A stretch of DNA of 64,000 nucleotides from Gossypium raimondii (taxonomy: Eukaryota; Streptophyta; Magnoliopsida; Malvales; Malvaceae): NCBI RefSeq assembly GCF_025698545.1, contig NC_068569.1, positions 24,490,001 to 24,554,000 on the forward strand, read 5' to 3'. The notes below the pieces were generated by a model. That model ran no database searches, had not been told where the DNA came from, and saw nothing but the letters and a program-made list of their open reading frames with translations. Shown here one piece after another: positions 2,751 through 63,066 of the stretch (positions are counted from its first letter, which is position 1; each line of letters opens with the position of its first letter). Made by a program: the position numbers and the translations under genes.

Positions 2751-3093
2751 TTATACAAGCTTTTCTTCTACAAGTTCAATGTGTGTATATGTTTATAATT
2801 GTAAATAACAACCACCATTCGTTTTTTCTTTAATATTATTAAGAGTATAATCTCATGAATTTATAGTGTATAAATGTATAGATAATTGTTTAATCAAAGG
2901 TTAATGAGTCAAAGTTGATATAAAACATAACAACATCGAATGATTCAGTAGATTCCGTAGCGAAATTATAAATATATTTCTATATAGATTATACAAGACA
3001 CCGAGATGTATAGCATATTACATTAATAAATATACCACTTCTCTAAATAGAACAAAGATTAAATCTTTAATCAGATATGCGTGCATATAACAA
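2751..3093. other. Intergenic spacer between convergent genes
   Basis: AT-rich spacer holding the 3' ends of the UPF0496 gene and of the first citrate-binding-protein gene. No coding sequence is visible. Confidence 0.5.
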
Positions 3094-3981
3094 TCATTTT
3101 TTGAAAAGCTTAATATCCCTCCACCTAGATTCCATGAAGTTGCTAGATTTAGCAGGTGCAGCATAAACGCCACATTTGAAATACAAGTCACCGGGTCCTT
3201 GATCGTTCACCACGAACTTCTCTTCTCCATCAATGAAAACAGTGATCTTCCCTTTGCCTACATCATGGATCACATTCACTCGAAACCACTTGTCGTACAG
3301 ATCCGTGGCCACCAGGTTGTACCGATAATACCTCATGTTTCCATTGTAAATCCGCAGTTGCAGCGTCGTTGCTCCTTCAGCAGCGCCATGAATTTGCACT
3401 ATGGTCACCCCGGATGTCCCTGTTGGGACGAAAGCATAGCCTTCAAATTGCCAAATTCCAGACGAATAGTCATGTCCCTATAACACCATGCACCCACAGT
3501 TCAATTAGATTGCACTTGGGTTTCATAGTATGTGTTCCATTTCGAACGGAATTGAATAAAACTATAATGCCCTTCGTAGAAAAAGATAAGATCAATTTAA
3601 AAAATGGCATTTATATTTTTTTTGCAAAGATACTTAAATATCCGTAATCACGTAAAGCCTCCAAATTAATATTTTACTTCTTACCACTTGATTCAATACA
3701 TGCTAGTTTACCTTTATACGCACTTCTGTGCGAGGTCTAGTGTCACTGTCAGGTTTGAAGGACTTATCTCTATTGTAGACCCAAAAACTCCGAATACCAT
3801 CGGAGTAATTATAACGTTGAGAAAGTGGTATATTATACGGTTTCTGTAAATCGAAATTCTCATCTGTTAATGGCACACGAGTGAACCCATCGGTAGGATC
3901 TGCACCACAAATAAACCAATGATCTTTCAAACAAAAAATAACAACAATAATCAAAAGTTTGTAGCAATTGGAAGCCTTCAT
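3094..3981 (-). CDS. Citrate-binding-protein-like secreted protein, copy 1
   Basis: Two exons on the minus strand, 3981-3712 and 3477-3094, joined by a 234-base intron with GT-AG ends in phase 0, give 217 residues. A hydrophobic signal peptide covers about residues 1-26 and ends ...WFICG. The mature part begins ADPTDGFTRVPL and continues through FWVYNRDKSFKPDS, TRPRTEVRIK, GHDYSSGIWQFEGY and the VYAAPAK near the C-terminus. This is the plant citrate-binding-protein group of the alginate-lyase-2 (PF08787) jelly-roll fold, named after the rubber-tree vacuolar citrate-binding protein. Its biochemical role in this plant is not provable from sequence. An almost identical second exon occurs in the tandem copy at 9862-10827. 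A TATA box lies about 80 bases before the start. Confidence 0.9.
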
Positions 3982-4058
3982 TTTGGTGCAATTTCAGAAG
4001 AAGAAGTAAAGGAAAACTTAAGTTGTATGAAGATGGCATAACCAGATCTTTGGGACCA

Positions 4059-4066
4059 TATTTATA
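4059..4066 (-). promoter_or_regulatory. TATA box of citrate-binding-protein copy 1
   Basis: TATAAATA on the minus strand, about 80 bases upstream of the ATG at 3981. The same element and the flanking bases are kept before copy 2 (10900-10907), which supports its being the core promoter. Confidence 0.6.
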
Positions 4067-4914
4067 GTCAGATATTTGACGGAAATATTTGCCACATTGT
4101 TTTTTAGATTAACTTTTGCCGTAAGCCATTGGCAGGACCTTTATGCTGCTGTTTTAATCGATTAGTCTTATATCTCAGCCAATGAAAAGCGCCTTGAAGC
4201 TGAAACTTTGGCTTCATATGTCACAACTCTTTTAAGGTTCAAATTAATTCTCTTAGATACTACAATTATGTCTTCATCTCCAATGAATATTATGCTGTCC
4301 TTGATGAACCCATTTTAAAATTATATTATCCGGATTTAAATGAGTATGGGGTATGGTTTTGTATTTTATGTAAAAAAAAAGTATATTTTATATTTATAAT
4401 TAAATTTTGCAGGCGAATTTTAAAACTGCTTCATACTCAAGTGATGATCGAATCCTCAACCACTAGTTAAGGCAAATATATTTTAATCATGAATATAGAA
4501 TATAATTTGCAATGAGTCATCGATGATATCGGTAAAGGCTGAAGCCATATTTTGATATCTATTATGAATTAAATTCTCTCCTGTACCTATATAGTTTGTA
4601 ATTGCAGTTGTAAGCAGTAAATTTTGGGTGATTTTTAACCGCATATTGCCGAGGAAACTTGGTTGATGCTACCTGACAAGCTGTTTAAAAGAAGTGACCG
4701 GATTCCTTTTGAGGTTTCTGTTGTAAAGAAAAAAAACCCTTAATTAAACCAACTAATTCGAAAAATAGCAATCATTAATTCTAAATACTAAGTAAATATA
4801 ATAAAAACAAAATTAGGTATCCACATAACTTTTTATCATTTTTCAATTATTTAATTACATTTTAACAATATTTTCTATATAATTAATATATAATTTTGAT
4901 AATCTTTTTTACCT
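4067..4914. other. Promoter-distal AT-rich spacer
   Basis: Upstream region of citrate-binding-protein copy 1. Its first 200 bases are still partly alignable with the upstream region of copy 2 (for example the 'ggcaggacctttatgctg' stretch near 4131 and 10979), marking the duplicated segment. Beyond that I see only AT-rich sequence. Confidence 0.4.
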
Positions 4915-9645: not shown

Positions 9646-9861
9646 GTTTGAAAACTCCTAGGAAGAATCATAGCTGAAAAAGGGAAGAAATCAAGAAGCA
9701 AAATATAATACTAAGATCAATAGCAGATTACATTGATAAATAATCACTTTTCTAAGCAGAGATTAAATATTAACTATATATATGTATACAAGACCAAGAT
9801 GAATAGCATATTACATTAATCAATAACCACTTCGTTAATTATATATGTGTATATATAACAA

Positions 9862-10827
9862 TCATTTTTTGAAAAGCTTAATGTCCCTCCACCTAGATTC
9901 CATGAAGTTGCTAGATTTAGCAGGTGCAGCATAAACGCCACATTTGAAATACAAGTCACCGGGTCCTTGATCGTTCACCACAAACTTCTCTTCTCCATCA
10001 ATGAAAACAGTGATCTTCCCTTTGCCTACATCATGGATCACATTCACTCGAAACCACTTGTCGTACAAGTCGGTGGCCACCAAGTTGTACCTATAATACC
10101 TCATGTTTCCATCGTAAATCCGCAGTTGCAGCGTCGTTGCTCCTTCAGCAGCGCCATGAATTTGCACTATGGTCACCCCGGATGTCCCTGTTGGGACGAA
10201 AGCATAGCCTTCAAATTGCCAAATTCCAGACGAATAGTCATGTCCCTAAAACCCACGTACGGTTCAGTTAGAATGCACTTTGGCTTCATAGTGTGTGTTA
10301 GACAAACGAGATATTTTTCCAAAGATCCGTCCGATTTTGGACGAAATTGAATAACAATATAATGCCCAAAAATGGTACACTTGCATTTGCATGTCATTTT
10401 TTTATTATTAAAGATGTTTGAATATCTCGTAGCCACCTTACGTCTAATTATTCTAGAATCGAATCAGAACAGACTCAAAGGAGAAAAGTTTTTTCTTTTC
10501 AAAAAATTCGAGACTAAGACTTCTCTTTATCACTCGATTGAAGATACGTTAATTTACCTTTATGCGTACTTCTGTGCGAGGCCTAGTGCCGCTGTCAGGT
10601 TTGAAGGGCTTATCTTTATTGTAGACCCAAAAACTTCGAACACCATCGGAGTAATTATAACGTTGGGAGAGTGGCATATTATATGGTTTTTGTAAATCAA
10701 AATTCTCATCTGTTAATGGCACACGAATAAATCCATCCGTAGGATCTGCACCACAAATAAGTAACTGGTGATTTAAACAAACAACAGCAACAATAATCAA
10801 AACTCTATAGCAATTGGAACCCTTCAT
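9862..10827 (-). CDS. Citrate-binding-protein-like secreted protein, copy 2
   Basis: Exons 10827-10558 and 10245-9862 with a 312-base phase-0 intron give 217 residues, the same structure as the copy at 3094-3981. The signal peptide (MKGSNCYRVLIIVAVVCLN...) and exon 1 differ from copy 1 at about 17 of 90 residues. Exon 2 differs at only 1 of 127 residues (IYDGN against IYNGN). At DNA level I count about 8 differences in 384 bases for exon 2 and close to 40 in 270 for exon 1. The pair is a local tandem duplication in the same orientation; the unequal divergence points to later gene conversion over exon 2. Function as for copy 1. Confidence 0.9.
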
Positions 10828-10899
10828 TTTGGTGCAATTGGAATAGTATAATCAAAACTTGAGTTGTATGAAGATAGCATAACCAGATCTTTGAAACCA

Positions 10900-10907
10900 T
10901 ATTTATA
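10900..10907 (-). promoter_or_regulatory. TATA box of citrate-binding-protein copy 2
   Basis: TATAAATA on the minus strand, 73-80 bases before the ATG at 10827, in the same context as the box of copy 1. Confidence 0.6.
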
Positions 10908-11119
10908 GTAAGATATCTTACTTTGTTTTTTAGTTTATTTTTCAGATTAAGGTTTACCGTAAGGCATTAAATAAGAATGGCAGGACCTTTATGCTGTTTT
11001 CTTTCTCTCTTAAAGTCCAACTATATTGCTCTTTTGGGAACTCTTTTAAGGTTGAAATTATTTGTCTTAGATACTCATATTATGTCTGCTTCTCCAATGA
11101 ATATTATGTTGTCCTTTGT

Positions 11120-39910: not shown

Positions 39911-40604
39911 AGCAATTTGTTACCTATTTATATTTATCTATCTATATATCGAGTTGAACTCCCTAATCAATTGAATTCTAATTTAGTTGTAAATTTACCA
40001 AAAACACTTCATTTTTATAAAGTAATATATATTATTTTGAAGGTAATTTTATCTTTTCACATAAAATTTAGAAAAATACTTGCAATGAGATTTAATATGG
40101 TTCTGATAATATATACTCTTTTGATACAATGTTTAGAACTCCTTATAATCCCTCCCAACCCATAAATAGGAGAATAATAGGTTTCAACGCACTCAAACAC
40201 ATGTTCTCTTATATCAGCAACAATATTCATACTAATCGAGCTAAGATTCAATCGATAACTGTTACCTAATATTAAATATGACAATAATCTAACTTGGTTG
40301 TTGAAAATTGTAATATGATGCTGTTGTTGAAATTTTAGGTAGTTTTTTTCTTTATATTTTTTTCTCCCTTTTTTCCCTCTTCCTCTTTTTCTTTTCTCCC
40401 AATTTTAAAAGATAATATATTTTTTAGTATCTTTCATATTCGTTTTATAGTTTATGTTCGTAGCTCGTGATTATTCCTCTTAATAATGTCATTTCTAATA
40501 TTTAAACATGCACTCTCTTTTGGAGTGTAATATACATTATCATTACATTCAATACTTATTAATAAAACGCGATCATTTTAATGTCTCTACTCATTGTTAA
40601 ATCA
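39911..40604. other. AT-rich spacer with one dispersed-looking block
   Basis: No gene. A block at about 40118-40262 ('aatccctcccaacccataaa', 'catgttctcttatatc', 'aatcgagctaagattcaatc') has a composition unlike its surroundings and looks like a dispersed repeat of unknown class. Confidence 0.35.
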
Positions 40605-40933
40605 AGCAGTTCCCTCTACCATTATCAATGCCATCACTTGCCATGAACCTCTTAAACTTAAACGCCATTGAATCTTCTCACTCCTTTGGATCATAACCTA
40701 TATTTGGCACCATGAAATTAATAACTCCATTATCAGGGAGATCAAATATCTAAGACAATGTCTTCTCTGTCACGCAATCAGGCACCACAAAGAGTGCTAA
40801 TAGGTGCCTTATTACCCCTTACAAAATCATTAGTTTCAAATAAAGCATCTCATCTTGCTTGATTTCTTTAACACAATTTTCTGCAACACCTTTGATTTCA
40901 ATCAATACTCTATCTTTAATATAAGGATATTTA

Positions 40934-41586
40934 GGGCTTATTTAGTAGTGCTTAAAAAATATTTTTGGTTGAAATTTTAACTTTTAAAAGCATTTTTAAA
41001 AATACTTTTCAAAATCACTTCGAAAGAGAAGTTAAAATTTTAACTTTTTTCTCAAAAACACTTTTGATGCTTAATTATTTTTCACCTCTTCAAAAATATA
41101 GTATTTTCCTTTCTTTTTTTTCTTGGTGCTTAATTACAAATGTGTTAAAATCATTAATTAAAAATAAAATTATATTTTTGAAATAATAAAATATGTTAAT
41201 ATCTAATTACAAATATTTAATGGTTATATTTAACTATTTAAAATATAGTTTATATATTCTAATTAAATTTTATAAATAATTAATATTTATTGTTTAAAAT
41301 ATTTAAAATTTATATTTCATATATTAAAATTTTAACAAGAAGTTATAATAATTTTTTATATTCTTACTAAAATATAATAATATTAATTAATTTGAACATT
41401 ATTTAAATGCATATTTGTTATTTGATAATAACATGTCTAAAATGGACATTTTATTTCTCAAATGTATTTTTTGACAAGAATGCTTAACACTCAAATCTTA
41501 AACTAAAATTTTTAAAGTACTTCTCAAAATCACTTTTTTGCAGTATCTTTCAAAAGTACTTTTAAAAAATATTACTAAATTAGCCC
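40934..41586. mobile_element. Tourist-like MITE (PIF/Harbinger), 653 bp
   Basis: Terminal inverted repeats GGGCTTATTTAGTAGT and GGGCTAATTTAGTAAT are directly flanked by TTA on both sides (40931-40933 and 41587-41589). That 3-bp duplication is the PIF/Harbinger signature. The insertion point lies inside the P450 relic, between the codons for the NL and KYP segments. The arms stay similar for some tens of bases ('aagtacttttaaaaa' type) around an AT-rich core. Confidence 0.75.
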
Positions 41587-41704
41587 TTAATCAAATTTCC
41601 CATTATCCACCGTAAATTTGTAGAGGTTGTATAAGCAATAACATCGATAAACTTAGAGGCCAAAGTAACAATCTTTTCTTCATCAAGTTTCCTTTTCTCA
41701 TTTA

Positions 41705-41854
41705 GGGTGAGTTTGGATGGGTGGTGCGTTTACCTGCGGTTAGTGTAAAAACAACGGTGGTGGTGATATTAGATACTGTAGCGATACTGTAGCATGAGAC
41801 AAAAAGTAAGCTAAACACACCGCACCGCACCCAATCGACCATCCAAACCAACCT
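41705..41854. mobile_element. Tourist-like MITE (PIF/Harbinger), 150 bp
   Basis: Ends GGGTGAGTTTGGATGG and AGGTTGGTTTGGATGG (reverse complement of the right end) are flanked by TTA at 41702-41704 and 41855-41857. The body contains 'gatactgtagcgatactgtagc'-type sequence and 'cgcaccgcaccc'. It splits the P450 relic just before the EKRKL segment. Confidence 0.75.
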
Positions 41855-41910
41855 TTAGCAATTCCAAATCCATCAAAATATCAACATATGTCGAACACAT
41901 TAATAAAATG

Positions 41911-47900: not shown

Positions 47901-50900
47901 CTTCAACTTCATCAACAAGTTCAAGTTAAAAAAATCCTAATTAAATCTTTGGTGTTAAGGATTATGCTCTTCCCAAATCAGGATTGATAATATAATTTGT
48001 AGGATTTATCATAGTTCCATAACATCTTGCAGGAAGGTGGTGTGCAGACTAAATTAGGAAAGCTATGCAATGGTGAATAAGATGGTTGAAACTTCATTCA
48101 GTACCTCCCATTTTCTAGTCAACTTGACATAATAATAAATGAAATGTAAAAATTCTTTTTAACAATACAATACAAATTTCTATGTTGCTCCTTATGACCT
48201 TAATATATGATATAGTTATATCAGTTTTTTTTAATTATGGAAACCCTTGTGCTTTCATATTTGTAGATGATCTTCTAACATGTAGAATTTAATAAAAAAA
48301 TTTCAGATTGCATTTTCTCGTTAAAGATAGCATTGGCAGCAGTGTTCACATTCCTATGATTATTCGTTTGTTTTTTGTCATGGAAGAATCTAAAATGTGA
48401 AAGCACATTTTGGTATCATTGGATTGATTGGGCAGAGTTAGAAACTTGAAATCCGAGGTTGATTTGAGATCCTAATTCTTAGGGTCAGTGTTTAATTTTT
48501 CTTTTTCATGGTAATAAAGTTGTGAGTGGTGTTATTATTGCTAGCATATATTTTGTTTGGTTTATAACATTAGAAAGGAATATGTTTTGTATTTCTATTC
48601 ATCCAACTCATCGAAAATGATCCCAACTAAGAATTCATTTTTAAGGTCAAAATTTGATTGGATCCCGTTGTTCATATGTGCATTCTTTTAGTTTGATAAG
48701 CATTGTATATTGCCTTCAGTTGCTCTTCATTCCTAGGTTTTATTGGATTTACTCCTATTCTCCATATTAAATGATCATGACTATTAAAATCTGCCAGTTC
48801 TTCCCTTGGAATAATAATGAGGATGCACGACAACCTGAAACAAAAGCAATTATGAGTTGGTTGAGAGAAATGCGTTTTACAGCATCTGCAAGTTTGCATG
48901 GGGTAATATTTTATTCTCACTTCTCTTGTTGTGTATTTATTAAACTCAGAGAGTGCTATTGTTATTGGACATTGACAATAGCTGTTACTTTTTCCCTGTC
49001 AGTTTTTAGATTGCTTCAATTTCTTGGCAAAACGTTGTAAATGACTATATTTGAAGATAAACATGATAGGCATAGAAGATTTAATCACAAATGATAAGAG
49101 AAGCTTCCCTTCATCATTTATCTTTCTTGGCATCACTTTTATTTCCCTTTTTGAAATATGCAAAGATGCTTCTGTCACCCGACTCTTATCTTGTAAACTT
49201 ATACATATATGTATGTGCATGTATGAGTTGCTTTGAAAGATAACTTAAGGGTGTGTTTAGCATTGTTTCTCAAAAGCACTTTTCTAGCCAAACCAGATTT
49301 TCAAGCCATAAGCAATGCTAAGCAGATAGTTTTTCAAGCTAAAAGTGCTTTTAAAACTAGGCTTTTAAGTCAACTCAAAAAGCTAAAATTTCTAGCTTCT
49401 GGCTTTTGGAAAATCATGTTTGAGCTGAATTATCTATTTCCCCTCATTGTCTAGCCTGAATTTCAGAAATTTATTTTAACTTTACAACATCATGTCTAAA
49501 TAGACATTTTATCTTTTCAAAAGCACTTTTTGATAGCATTGCTGACTACTTAAATCATAAAGCAAACTTTTCAAAAGCAATGCTAAACTAGTTGGAAGTA
49601 AATGCTTAAAGAGTCAAGACTCCATTCTGTAGATCACCTTAGTGTTGCATGCAATGTACCTCTATATTGAACCGATTCTTCATTTTCTTGACAGTCTCTT
49701 GTCTAGCACCCAAATATATATATATATATATATGTGAGTTGCTTTGTGAGAGAAATTAAATACTAGTTAGAACTAGAAGTCAATGCATAAAGAGCAAAGA
49801 CTCCGTTCTGCAGGTAATGTTAGTGTTGCATGGAGTGTACCTCTATTTTGATTCAACTCTTCATTTTTCTTGAAGTACCCTTGTCCAACATCCTTGTCCG
49901 ACACATTTCAGACATGGGTATGGGGATATTACCCTCCAAAAACATGAAAAAAATAAGAAAAAATTGAACAGACCTATGTCAGACGCATACCCATATCCAA
50001 CACTCAAACTCGAGTCAGAGTAACATAAATTTACTAGAGTATTTATCCAACGGTAGAATTCTGTGTGAGGTGCCCAAAGTAAGGGCAATAAGAAAATTTT
50101 AGCTAAATTGGTGTAGTAAAATTTTTGAGGGCTGGAGATAATGTTGCAAAACTGAAGAAATGGAAAACTAAAGCCTGATGCCCCTTCATGTACATGCTGT
50201 GGCCCATCTATGTTTTATTGTTTGGTAAATATATGCCTATTCTTATACTTTAATCTTTGATTTAGGCTCTGATTTATTAATGCTTTTTCTATTTGCTGTT
50301 TCCTATTCATTTTTTTTCTTTTTACTGTATTGTCTTCTTGCAAAAATAGAATAGAAAAAGTATCAACCAAACAGAGCCTTAGTGAGAGTGAGAATTTAAT
50401 TCTAAAGTTTTGTTATCAATTTTAGATTGCTGGCATTCAGATCTAGTAAAAGTTTATACCTTCTAATGATGTACATGGTAGTTCTGTCTCATTACTTCAA
50501 AATATCTGATATTGATGGAATGAGGCTATGAATTTGATCTTGTTTGGTATACAAGAAACTTAAGGGGAGGAGCCTATTAACAATTCATTTTTTACAGGGT
50601 GCACTTGTTGCTAACTATCCATGGGACGCCTCTCTGGATAAAAGGTGATTCTTCTTCGTTATCAGCTTTAAAATTGCAAAGCTGCACCTACAAAATTATT
50701 CAAGTTCCTTGTAGCTCCTGCCTGTTATTTAAATATTTTTTCTAGGCATGCTAAACTATCAGGTGTTATATCTCGGCATTTTAGGCTTCAGCTTAATTCA
50801 TGTTTAAGTTATATTTGTCTAATTCCTTTTTAAGCAAGCAATTTAATTTCCTTGATTTGGTTATTAGATGTTCATAAATGGATGTTTCATCAGTTAAACG

Positions 50901-59171: not shown

Positions 59172-60824
59172 TGTAACAACCCGATTTCAACCCTAATCGG
59201 ACATAATGGTTTCGGGACCACAAATTCGAGTTGAAAAAAAAAATTTAATATTACTTTGTGAGTTACTATGTGTGAATTTGATTGTGTGAAATTTTCGTGT
59301 TTAAATTTTGTTGTTTGAGTAACTGATTAAATAAAAAGGACTTAATCGCGTAAAAATAAAAATTTAGGGGTTAAAGCTAAAAGTATCTATTTGTTGTTGT
59401 CTTTTTATTTGGAAGGTTTAAACATGAAATTAGACCACTAAATAGTTAGTGGATGGCTAAGGACAAAACTAACCTTATTATATATAAGTTATATTTATTT
59501 AAATAAGGTTAAATGACTAATTAACAAATATTATAATATAAGATAGTTAAAAGCATAAAAACATTAGATTATTATCATCTTTCTTAGCCGAAACCAAGAA
59601 GGAAGAAAGCCATTAAAGCTTAGTCAAGTTTCGGTCATATTCAAGCTTAAATTCAAGGTTCGTTTTTGTTCAGTTTTCGATAATTTTTACGTTTTTGAGA
59701 TCGTTGCTTCGAATACTTCAAAACCCGTGCCTTAATTTTATGAATTGTTGATGATTTTGAAAAGCACCATTGATGAATGCTTGAGCTTTGTGATAGTTGA
59801 TGATGAAATATGAAAGATATGTGAAAGGTTAATATGTTTTGTCTTTGAATTTTTTATGAATTTGAGTAATTAGGGTTAAATTGTAAAAACAAATTTTTGA
59901 GGGGCTAAAATGTGAAATAAATAAAATGTGTGGGCTTGTAAAGACACTAGGAATATTTGGCCCTAAAGGAGTGTAGCCAAATTTTGTGTATTTTGTGTTT
60001 TGAGCAAAAAAAACTAAATTGTAAAAAAGTGTGAAATGTTAGGGACAAAATTGTAATTTGCCCATTTATGTGTTTTTAGGCTAAATTGAATAGAATGGTG
60101 TTTAAATAAGCTTAAATTGAATATGTTTAGATCAAGAATTAAAGAAATCAGATTTGGATCTGGGAAAGACAAAGGTGGTAGAGTAGCTGATTTAACGGTC
60201 GACGACATCCGGGGTAAGTCGATAAGCATTTAAATTTTGTTACATTCATGTTATATAGTAGATAGATAATATATGGAACCATTAGATGTAGTAAGAGGTT
60301 TTGACCAAATATACATATATATATTTGTTATAAGAAATAAGTTAATTGAGTTCGAATTAACTGATATTTAATGTCTGGAAGCATATTTGAACCTTAAAAA
60401 TTGTATGGAAATTTTCTGATAAGTGTTTTCGTGTAAGACCACGTCTGGGACGATGGCATCTATTTGTATTTTCGTGTAAGACCACGTCTAGGACGATGGC
60501 ATCGATTTGTATTTTCGTGTAGACCACGTCTGGGACGATGGCATCGATTTGTATTTTCGAGTAAGACCTTGTCTAGGACAGTGGCATCAATGTGCGATTA
60601 CATGTAAGACCACGTCTGGGACGATGGCGTTGTATGAATCTCTCGACTATTTGATTATTCTATTTATTTTCGATTGGTTCGACAAGTAATGTAAATGAAG
60701 ATTGTTATGTATTTGAAATGTATGTGCAGGTATAAGTTAGTTGAATAAATATATGGAATTAAGGTAAGTTATTTATTTGGAAGTATATATGGTATGAATA
60801 TATATGAGTTTTGAATTGTTATGG

Positions 60825-62474: not shown

Positions 62475-63066
62475 TGAAGCCTGCATCAAATATAAGTCCA
62501 ACTCTTCTTCCCTTAATCCACAACCAATGAGCCTTTAATCAATTTCCATGGACCTTACTGAAAGTGTTACAAAAACTATCATCATTAAACTTTCCTGCAG
62601 AAATCAAATCTAAATGAATATTCGTTGTATACCTAATATTTCAAGTGTCATCTTGGTTCCATTATTAGTGACCAAACTAACATCTCCCACACCAACAACT
62701 TGCACCAAGCTATCACTACCCATCTTTAATACCCCAAAATTGACAAAATTATAATATGTGAAGAACTTCTGTGACGTGACATGAAGCGTAACACCAGTAT
62801 CTATCACCCAACTAGTCTCATCGCATGATAGATTGATCAAATTCTTATGACAAAGGACTAACAAATCATCAGTAATAACAGTAGTAACATGTTCGAATTT
62901 CTCATTATCTCTTCTTTCTTATTTATTACCACCACCTCTATTCTCTCTATTCCACTTGCAGCAAAACTTTTTGATATGGCCTTTCTTGCCACAATTGTCA
63001 TGGGGTTGACCTTTAGTCTTACAATCTATGTGGCCTTAGGTGATCTCTTCGCTGTAAATGCACTTA

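What the first reader, a model, noticed from the sequence alone, without database searches (positions are those of the whole stretch)
40605..41910. Hidden P450 relic split by two TTA-flanked Tourist MITEs
The sequence between two MITEs and on either side reads as one continuous CYP89-like minus-strand frame once the MITEs are set aside: YVDILMDLEL, EKRKLDEEKIV, TTSTNLRWIMGNL, KYPYIKDR, NGVINFMV. Three in-frame stops, loss of the K-helix glutamate and loss of the heme loop show a dead gene. Both MITEs duplicated TTA, so two PIF/Harbinger insertions hit the same 1-kb relic. No open frame of normal length reveals it, so standard annotation would probably miss it.
Basis: partly seen in the sequence, partly recalled or inferred. 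Interest (0 to 1): 0.7.

Follow-up and report, generated by a model that had tools for sequence, protein, structure and literature searches.

The report
Dead plant P450 gene with transposons
A short, broken remnant of a plant cytochrome P450 gene has been cut into three pieces by two small jumping elements; it is a real but ordinary fossil gene.

Summary
On the minus strand, 41891-40605 reads as one cytochrome P450 frame once two small elements are set aside. They lie at 40934-41586 (653 bp) and 41705-41854 (150 bp), each between TTA duplications. Joining the flanks with one TTA kept at each site gives a single frame that matches Pfam p450 at 37.0 bits (cut-off 22.8), model positions 242-393 of 462. 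None of the other five frames, and neither of two shuffles scanned, matches p450. The frame has three stops; the ExxR, I-helix and PERF motifs are damaged. After a frameshift a probable remnant runs on to about 40565, just short of the missing heme loop. No N-terminal half was found. No orthologous locus could be examined, because the genome search failed six times. Rice alone has 27 P450 pseudogenes of 326 genes, CYP89 ones included. I read this as an ordinary, non-functional gene relic.

The parts
41856..41891 (-). Relic piece 1 (TYVDILMDLELL), start of the recognisable P450 remnant
   Evidence: translation; the Pfam match of the joined peptide begins at its residue 15, in YVD; no match when scanned alone
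41705..41854 (.). 150-bp MITE-like element; 16-bp terminal inverted repeats with 3 mismatches; TTA duplication at 41702-41704 and 41855-41857
41587..41701 (-). Relic piece 2 (NEKRKLDEEKIVTLASKFIDVIAYTTSTNLRWIMGNLIK), I-helix region with damaged AGxD/ETT motif
   Evidence: with the start of piece 3 it gives p450 27.2 bits for 75 residues (protein 10); alone no p450 match
40934..41586 (.). 653-bp MITE-like element; 14-bp terminal inverted repeats with 1 mismatch; TTA duplication at 40931-40933 and 41587-41589
40605..40932 (-). Relic piece 3: J/K-helix to the PERF region (aligned to 40633), with stops TAA 40821-40819 (K-helix Glu position), TAG 40752-40750, TGA 40680-40678
   Evidence: alone 11.3 bits, below the Pfam cut-off
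40565..40612 (-). Probable continuation in another frame (ELLDLTMSRDIKMIAF), the stretch just before the heme loop
   Evidence: tblastn with a recalled reference: 10 of 16 identical (62.5%), 23.1 bits, in order; below the best chance score on its own (26.6 bits) and adds no Pfam score (protein 9)

Best explanation
This is a fragment of a dead plant A-type P450 gene, most likely CYP89-like. What remains covers about 150-170 codons from before the I-helix to the PERF region and probably to just before the heme-binding loop. It has three in-frame stops and a likely frameshift, and the three signature motifs examined are damaged. Two non-autonomous DNA elements inserted into it, each duplicating TTA; leaving each out with one TTA kept gives one continuous frame (shown). 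It most likely does nothing. The order of events (truncation, stops, insertions) is not resolved; that a PIF/Harbinger transposase moved the elements is inferred from the TTA duplications and terminal repeats.
For: Joined frame: PF00067 37.0 bits against a cut-off of 22.8, E 2.3e-9, profile 242-393. Only 1 of 6 frames matches p450; 0 of 2 shuffles scanned do. Piece 3 alone gives 11.3 bits and pieces 1 and 2 alone no p450 match, so joining carries the signal. PDB phmmer lists 46 distinct sequences at E up to 1, all of them P450 enzymes by their names; best CYP1A2 1.4e-5, isoflavone synthase 1 1.4e-4. No gap falls at the KYP junction in the 3 alignments displayed, nor at either junction in the alignment to the recalled reference. 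A scan of the window for GG-starting terminal repeats within TTA/TAA, with settings chosen after the two elements were known, finds 3 structures, two of them these (4 hits in 20 Markov windows). Stops. Recalled CYP89A2-like reference: 47.1% identity over 155 columns, E 1.2e-40 on the joined DNA; 84.3 and 43.1 bits on the unjoined window against a best of 26.6 bits in 100 Markov windows.
Against: No orthologous, element-free or intact locus was seen: the genome search failed six times. The 653-bp element lacks the G(N)5GTT end motif. The window holds no other full copy of either element, only weak partial AT-rich matches to the 653-bp one, so their repeat nature is not shown by copy number. The 75-residue middle alone finds no PDB chain at E up to 0.1. 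The tail to 40565 is not significant on its own.
Confidence: 0.93

Rival explanations
1. The relic comes from another A-type (CYP71-clan) family than CYP89.
For: No CYP89 sequence was available from any held collection. Isoflavone synthase 1 (8e83) also aligns over query residues 27-163 at E 1.4e-4.
Against: 47% identity to a recalled CYP89A2-like protein is above the usual 40% family line (recalled; a 40% boundary is also mentioned in PMC5764023). The plant A-type chains in the PDB list score 25.1, 16.4, 16.3 and 14.2 bits by phmmer, against 139 bits by tblastn for the recalled reference; the two methods' scores are only roughly comparable.
Confidence: 0.1
2. The P450 piece was carried here inside a larger transposon (gene capture) rather than being a decayed resident gene or a local duplicate.
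For: It is a fragment for which no N-terminal half was found, and the recalled reference finds no other credible P450 piece in the window.
Against: The two elements found lie inside the relic, not around it. No enclosing element was looked for beyond the TTA/TAA scan of 80-900 bp, so this is weak.
Confidence: 0.1
3. Chance similarity in AT-rich DNA.
For: The pieces alone are insignificant in Pfam.
Against: The joined frame passes the Pfam cut-off by 14 bits; no other frame and neither shuffle scanned does; both junctions keep one frame.
Confidence: 0.01

Closest known systems
CYP89 family (A-type plant P450), with pseudogenes such as rice CYP89B7P, B8P, B12P (PMC5764023, passages seen)
   Same: Same stretch of the P450 fold with 47% identity to a recalled CYP89A2-like sequence; rice has a cluster of ten CYP89 genes and CYP89 pseudogenes.
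   Different: No N-terminal half or heme loop found, stops, a likely frameshift, damaged signature motifs; no second P450 piece seen in the window.
PIF/Harbinger-derived (Tourist-like) MITEs
   Same: TTA duplications and 14-16-bp terminal inverted repeats, three of the four ends beginning GGG. PMC2213677 (passages seen) gives 14-25-bp repeats and TTA/TAA duplications for autonomous PIF/Harbinger-like elements and used G(N)5GTT as a search motif in Medicago.
   Different: The 653-bp element reads GGGCTTATT / GGGCTAATT, not G(N)5GTT; the right end of the 150-bp element begins AGG. No transposase partner was sought and no further full copies were seen.

Membership tests
Cytochrome P450 (PF00067) | Match to the family profile above the curated cut-off | tested here: met
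   37.0 bits against 22.8 on the joined frame, profile 242-393 of 462
Cytochrome P450 (PF00067) | Heme-binding loop with the Cys ligand | tested here: not met
   Pfam match stops at profile position 393; none seen by eye in the three minus frames down to 40000
Cytochrome P450 (PF00067) | K-helix ExxR | tested here: not met
   Glu position is TAA, Arg position Ile in the alignment to a recalled reference
CYP89 | More than 40% identity to CYP89 members and closer to them than to other families | tested here: inconclusive
PIF/Harbinger (Tourist-like) MITE | 3-bp TTA/TAA duplication | tested here: met
   Both elements
[quoted passage not shown]
   150-bp element: motif at its left end only, 13 of 16 repeat positions match; 653-bp element: 13 of 14 match but ATT in place of GTT at both ends
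PIF/Harbinger (Tourist-like) MITE | Mobilised by a PIF/Harbinger transposase; many related copies in the genome | not testable with these tools
   Genome search did not complete; no further full copy in the window

The most novel reading that the evidence does not exclude
The relic, transcribed together with its inserted inverted-repeat elements, could yield small RNAs that act on intact CYP89 relatives elsewhere in the genome. Nothing here tests this.
Probability: 0.02. Interest if true: 0.45.

Novelty: new member of a known kind. Interest (0 to 1): 0.15.

Why it matters
It is one more degraded P450 copy that ORF-based annotation would probably miss, with two clean insertion sites. It could serve as a small dating marker if related genomes are compared. 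It changes no view of P450s or MITEs.

Tried and rejected
Related sequences: a scan of IMG/VR contigs with the first 99 residues found no relative (12 stretches matched a pattern, 0 confirmed). An inner 22-mer of the 150-bp element had 0 matches in viral contigs and 0 in genome contigs, and a blastn of that element against phages found nothing. These are virus, phage and prokaryote collections, so the misses say little. A paper search for six CYP89-like peptide strings found 0 papers. Paper searches were seen as listings only; passages were seen of PMC5764023 and PMC2213677. I make no claim that this locus is absent from print.

N-terminal half: three minus frames from 43000 to 41855 gave 0 Pfam families. 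The recalled full-length reference found no credible second P450 place in the window at E up to 10 (the one other hit, 52517-52470, has E 2.6). DNA beyond 43000 was not scanned with Pfam for P450.

Heme-side tail: adding the other-frame stretch did not raise the Pfam score (36.4 bits), so it rests on position and on the recalled reference only.

Insertion hot spot: two of the three TTA/TAA structures in the window start 771 bp apart. By hand, three random positions in 64 kb would put some pair that close about 7% of the time, so no special targeting is claimed.

Full report
What was claimed and what is there. I read the DNA, the stop-to-stop frames and the joined flanks. The quoted peptides are all present and in order. 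The open pieces that carry them are 49, 40 and 38 residues long, and the one with NGVINFMV is below the 30-residue listing limit, so an ORF-based annotation would probably not show it.

The two elements. Element 1 is 40934-41586 (653 bp), with ends GGGCTTATTTAGTA and GGGCTAATTTAGTA (13 of 14 positions) and TTA on both sides. Element 2 is 41705-41854 (150 bp), with ends GGGTGAGTTTGGATGG and AGGTTGGTTTGGATGG (13 of 16) and TTA on both sides. A scan of the window for TTA/TAA-flanked structures of 80-900 bp whose left repeat begins GG found 3 structures, two of them these; 20 Markov-random windows gave 4 in all. The scan's settings were chosen after the two elements were known. PMC2213677 (passages) gives 14-25-bp repeats and TTA/TAA duplications for autonomous PIF/Harbinger-like elements and used G(N)5GTT as a search motif in Medicago; element 2 fits at its left end, element 1 at neither end. 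Neither has another full copy in the window; element 1 has weak partial AT-rich matches only.

The P450 match. With both elements left out and one TTA kept at each site, one frame runs through both junctions. Pfam p450 then scores 37.0 bits (E 2.3e-9, cut-off 22.8) over profile positions 242-393. Alone, piece 3 scores 11.3 bits and pieces 1 and 2 give no p450 match; pieces 2 and 3 joined, cut to 75 residues, give 27.2 bits. All six frames of the joined core were scanned: 1 of 6 matches p450 (36.2 bits). Two others have single unrelated hits below cut-off (E 0.14 and 0.25), and 0 of 2 shuffled peptides match anything. In the PDB, phmmer lists 46 distinct sequences at E up to 1, all P450 enzymes by name, best CYP1A2 at 1.4e-5 and isoflavone synthase 1 at 1.4e-4. 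The three alignments displayed have no gap at the KYP junction; they begin after the other junction. The 75-residue middle alone finds no chain at E up to 0.1.

Why it is dead. Stops lie at 40821-40819 (TAA), 40752-40750 (TAG) and 40680-40678 (TGA). Against a recalled CYP89A2-like protein, the I-helix motif reads VIAYTT, the ExxR Glu is a stop and its Arg an Ile, and PERF reads FKRF (motif names recalled). The CYP1A2 alignment shows the same change at PERF. A stretch in another frame, 40612-40565, has 10 of 16 residues identical to the recalled reference just before the heme loop. Its 23.1 bits are below the best chance score of 26.6 in 100 Markov windows, and it adds nothing in Pfam, so it is probable from its position only. 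No heme loop is seen by eye in the minus frames down to 40000. The N-terminal half was not found in three frames up to 43000 or, with the recalled reference, anywhere in the window.

Which family. The CYP89 label rests on my recalled reference: 47.1% identity over 155 columns, 139 bits by tblastn on the joined DNA. Plant A-type chains in the PDB list score 25.1 bits or less by phmmer, a rough comparison across methods. No plant protein set was held, so membership is left inconclusive. In rice, a cluster of ten CYP89 genes lies on chromosome 10q, 27 of 326 P450 genes are predicted pseudogenes, and CYP89B7P, B8P and B12P are among those named (PMC5764023, passages). A relic of this kind is therefore expected.

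Verdict. It is a dead P450 fragment, most likely of CYP89, hit by two TTA-duplicating elements. The order of stops and insertions, and any orthologous site, could not be examined because the genome search did not complete. The host is a plant by gene content (for example the DUF677 and prolamin-like matches; that these are plant families is recalled). I suspect cotton or a near relative from memory of repeats like element 2, which no call tested.

Noticed in passing
window 50262-50381: A third TTA-flanked structure of 114 bp with ends GGCTCTGATTTATT / GGCTCTGTTTGGTT, possibly another PIF/Harbinger-type MITE.
   Followed up: partly
window 3064-4075 and 9832-10916: Two copies of one region, 94% and 86% identical in two blocks, same orientation; the first copy matches alginate lyase 2 (PF08787) at 3094-3477 on the minus strand (the second copy was not scanned).
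   Followed up: partly
window 62613-62918: Match to the Pol polyprotein beta-barrel domain (Pol_BBD, 39.4 bits), a retrotransposon part or remnant.
   Followed up: no
window 60423-60622: Overlapping direct repeat of about 158 bp at 43-bp offset, 85% identical, in a stretch of strong G over C skew.
   Followed up: no
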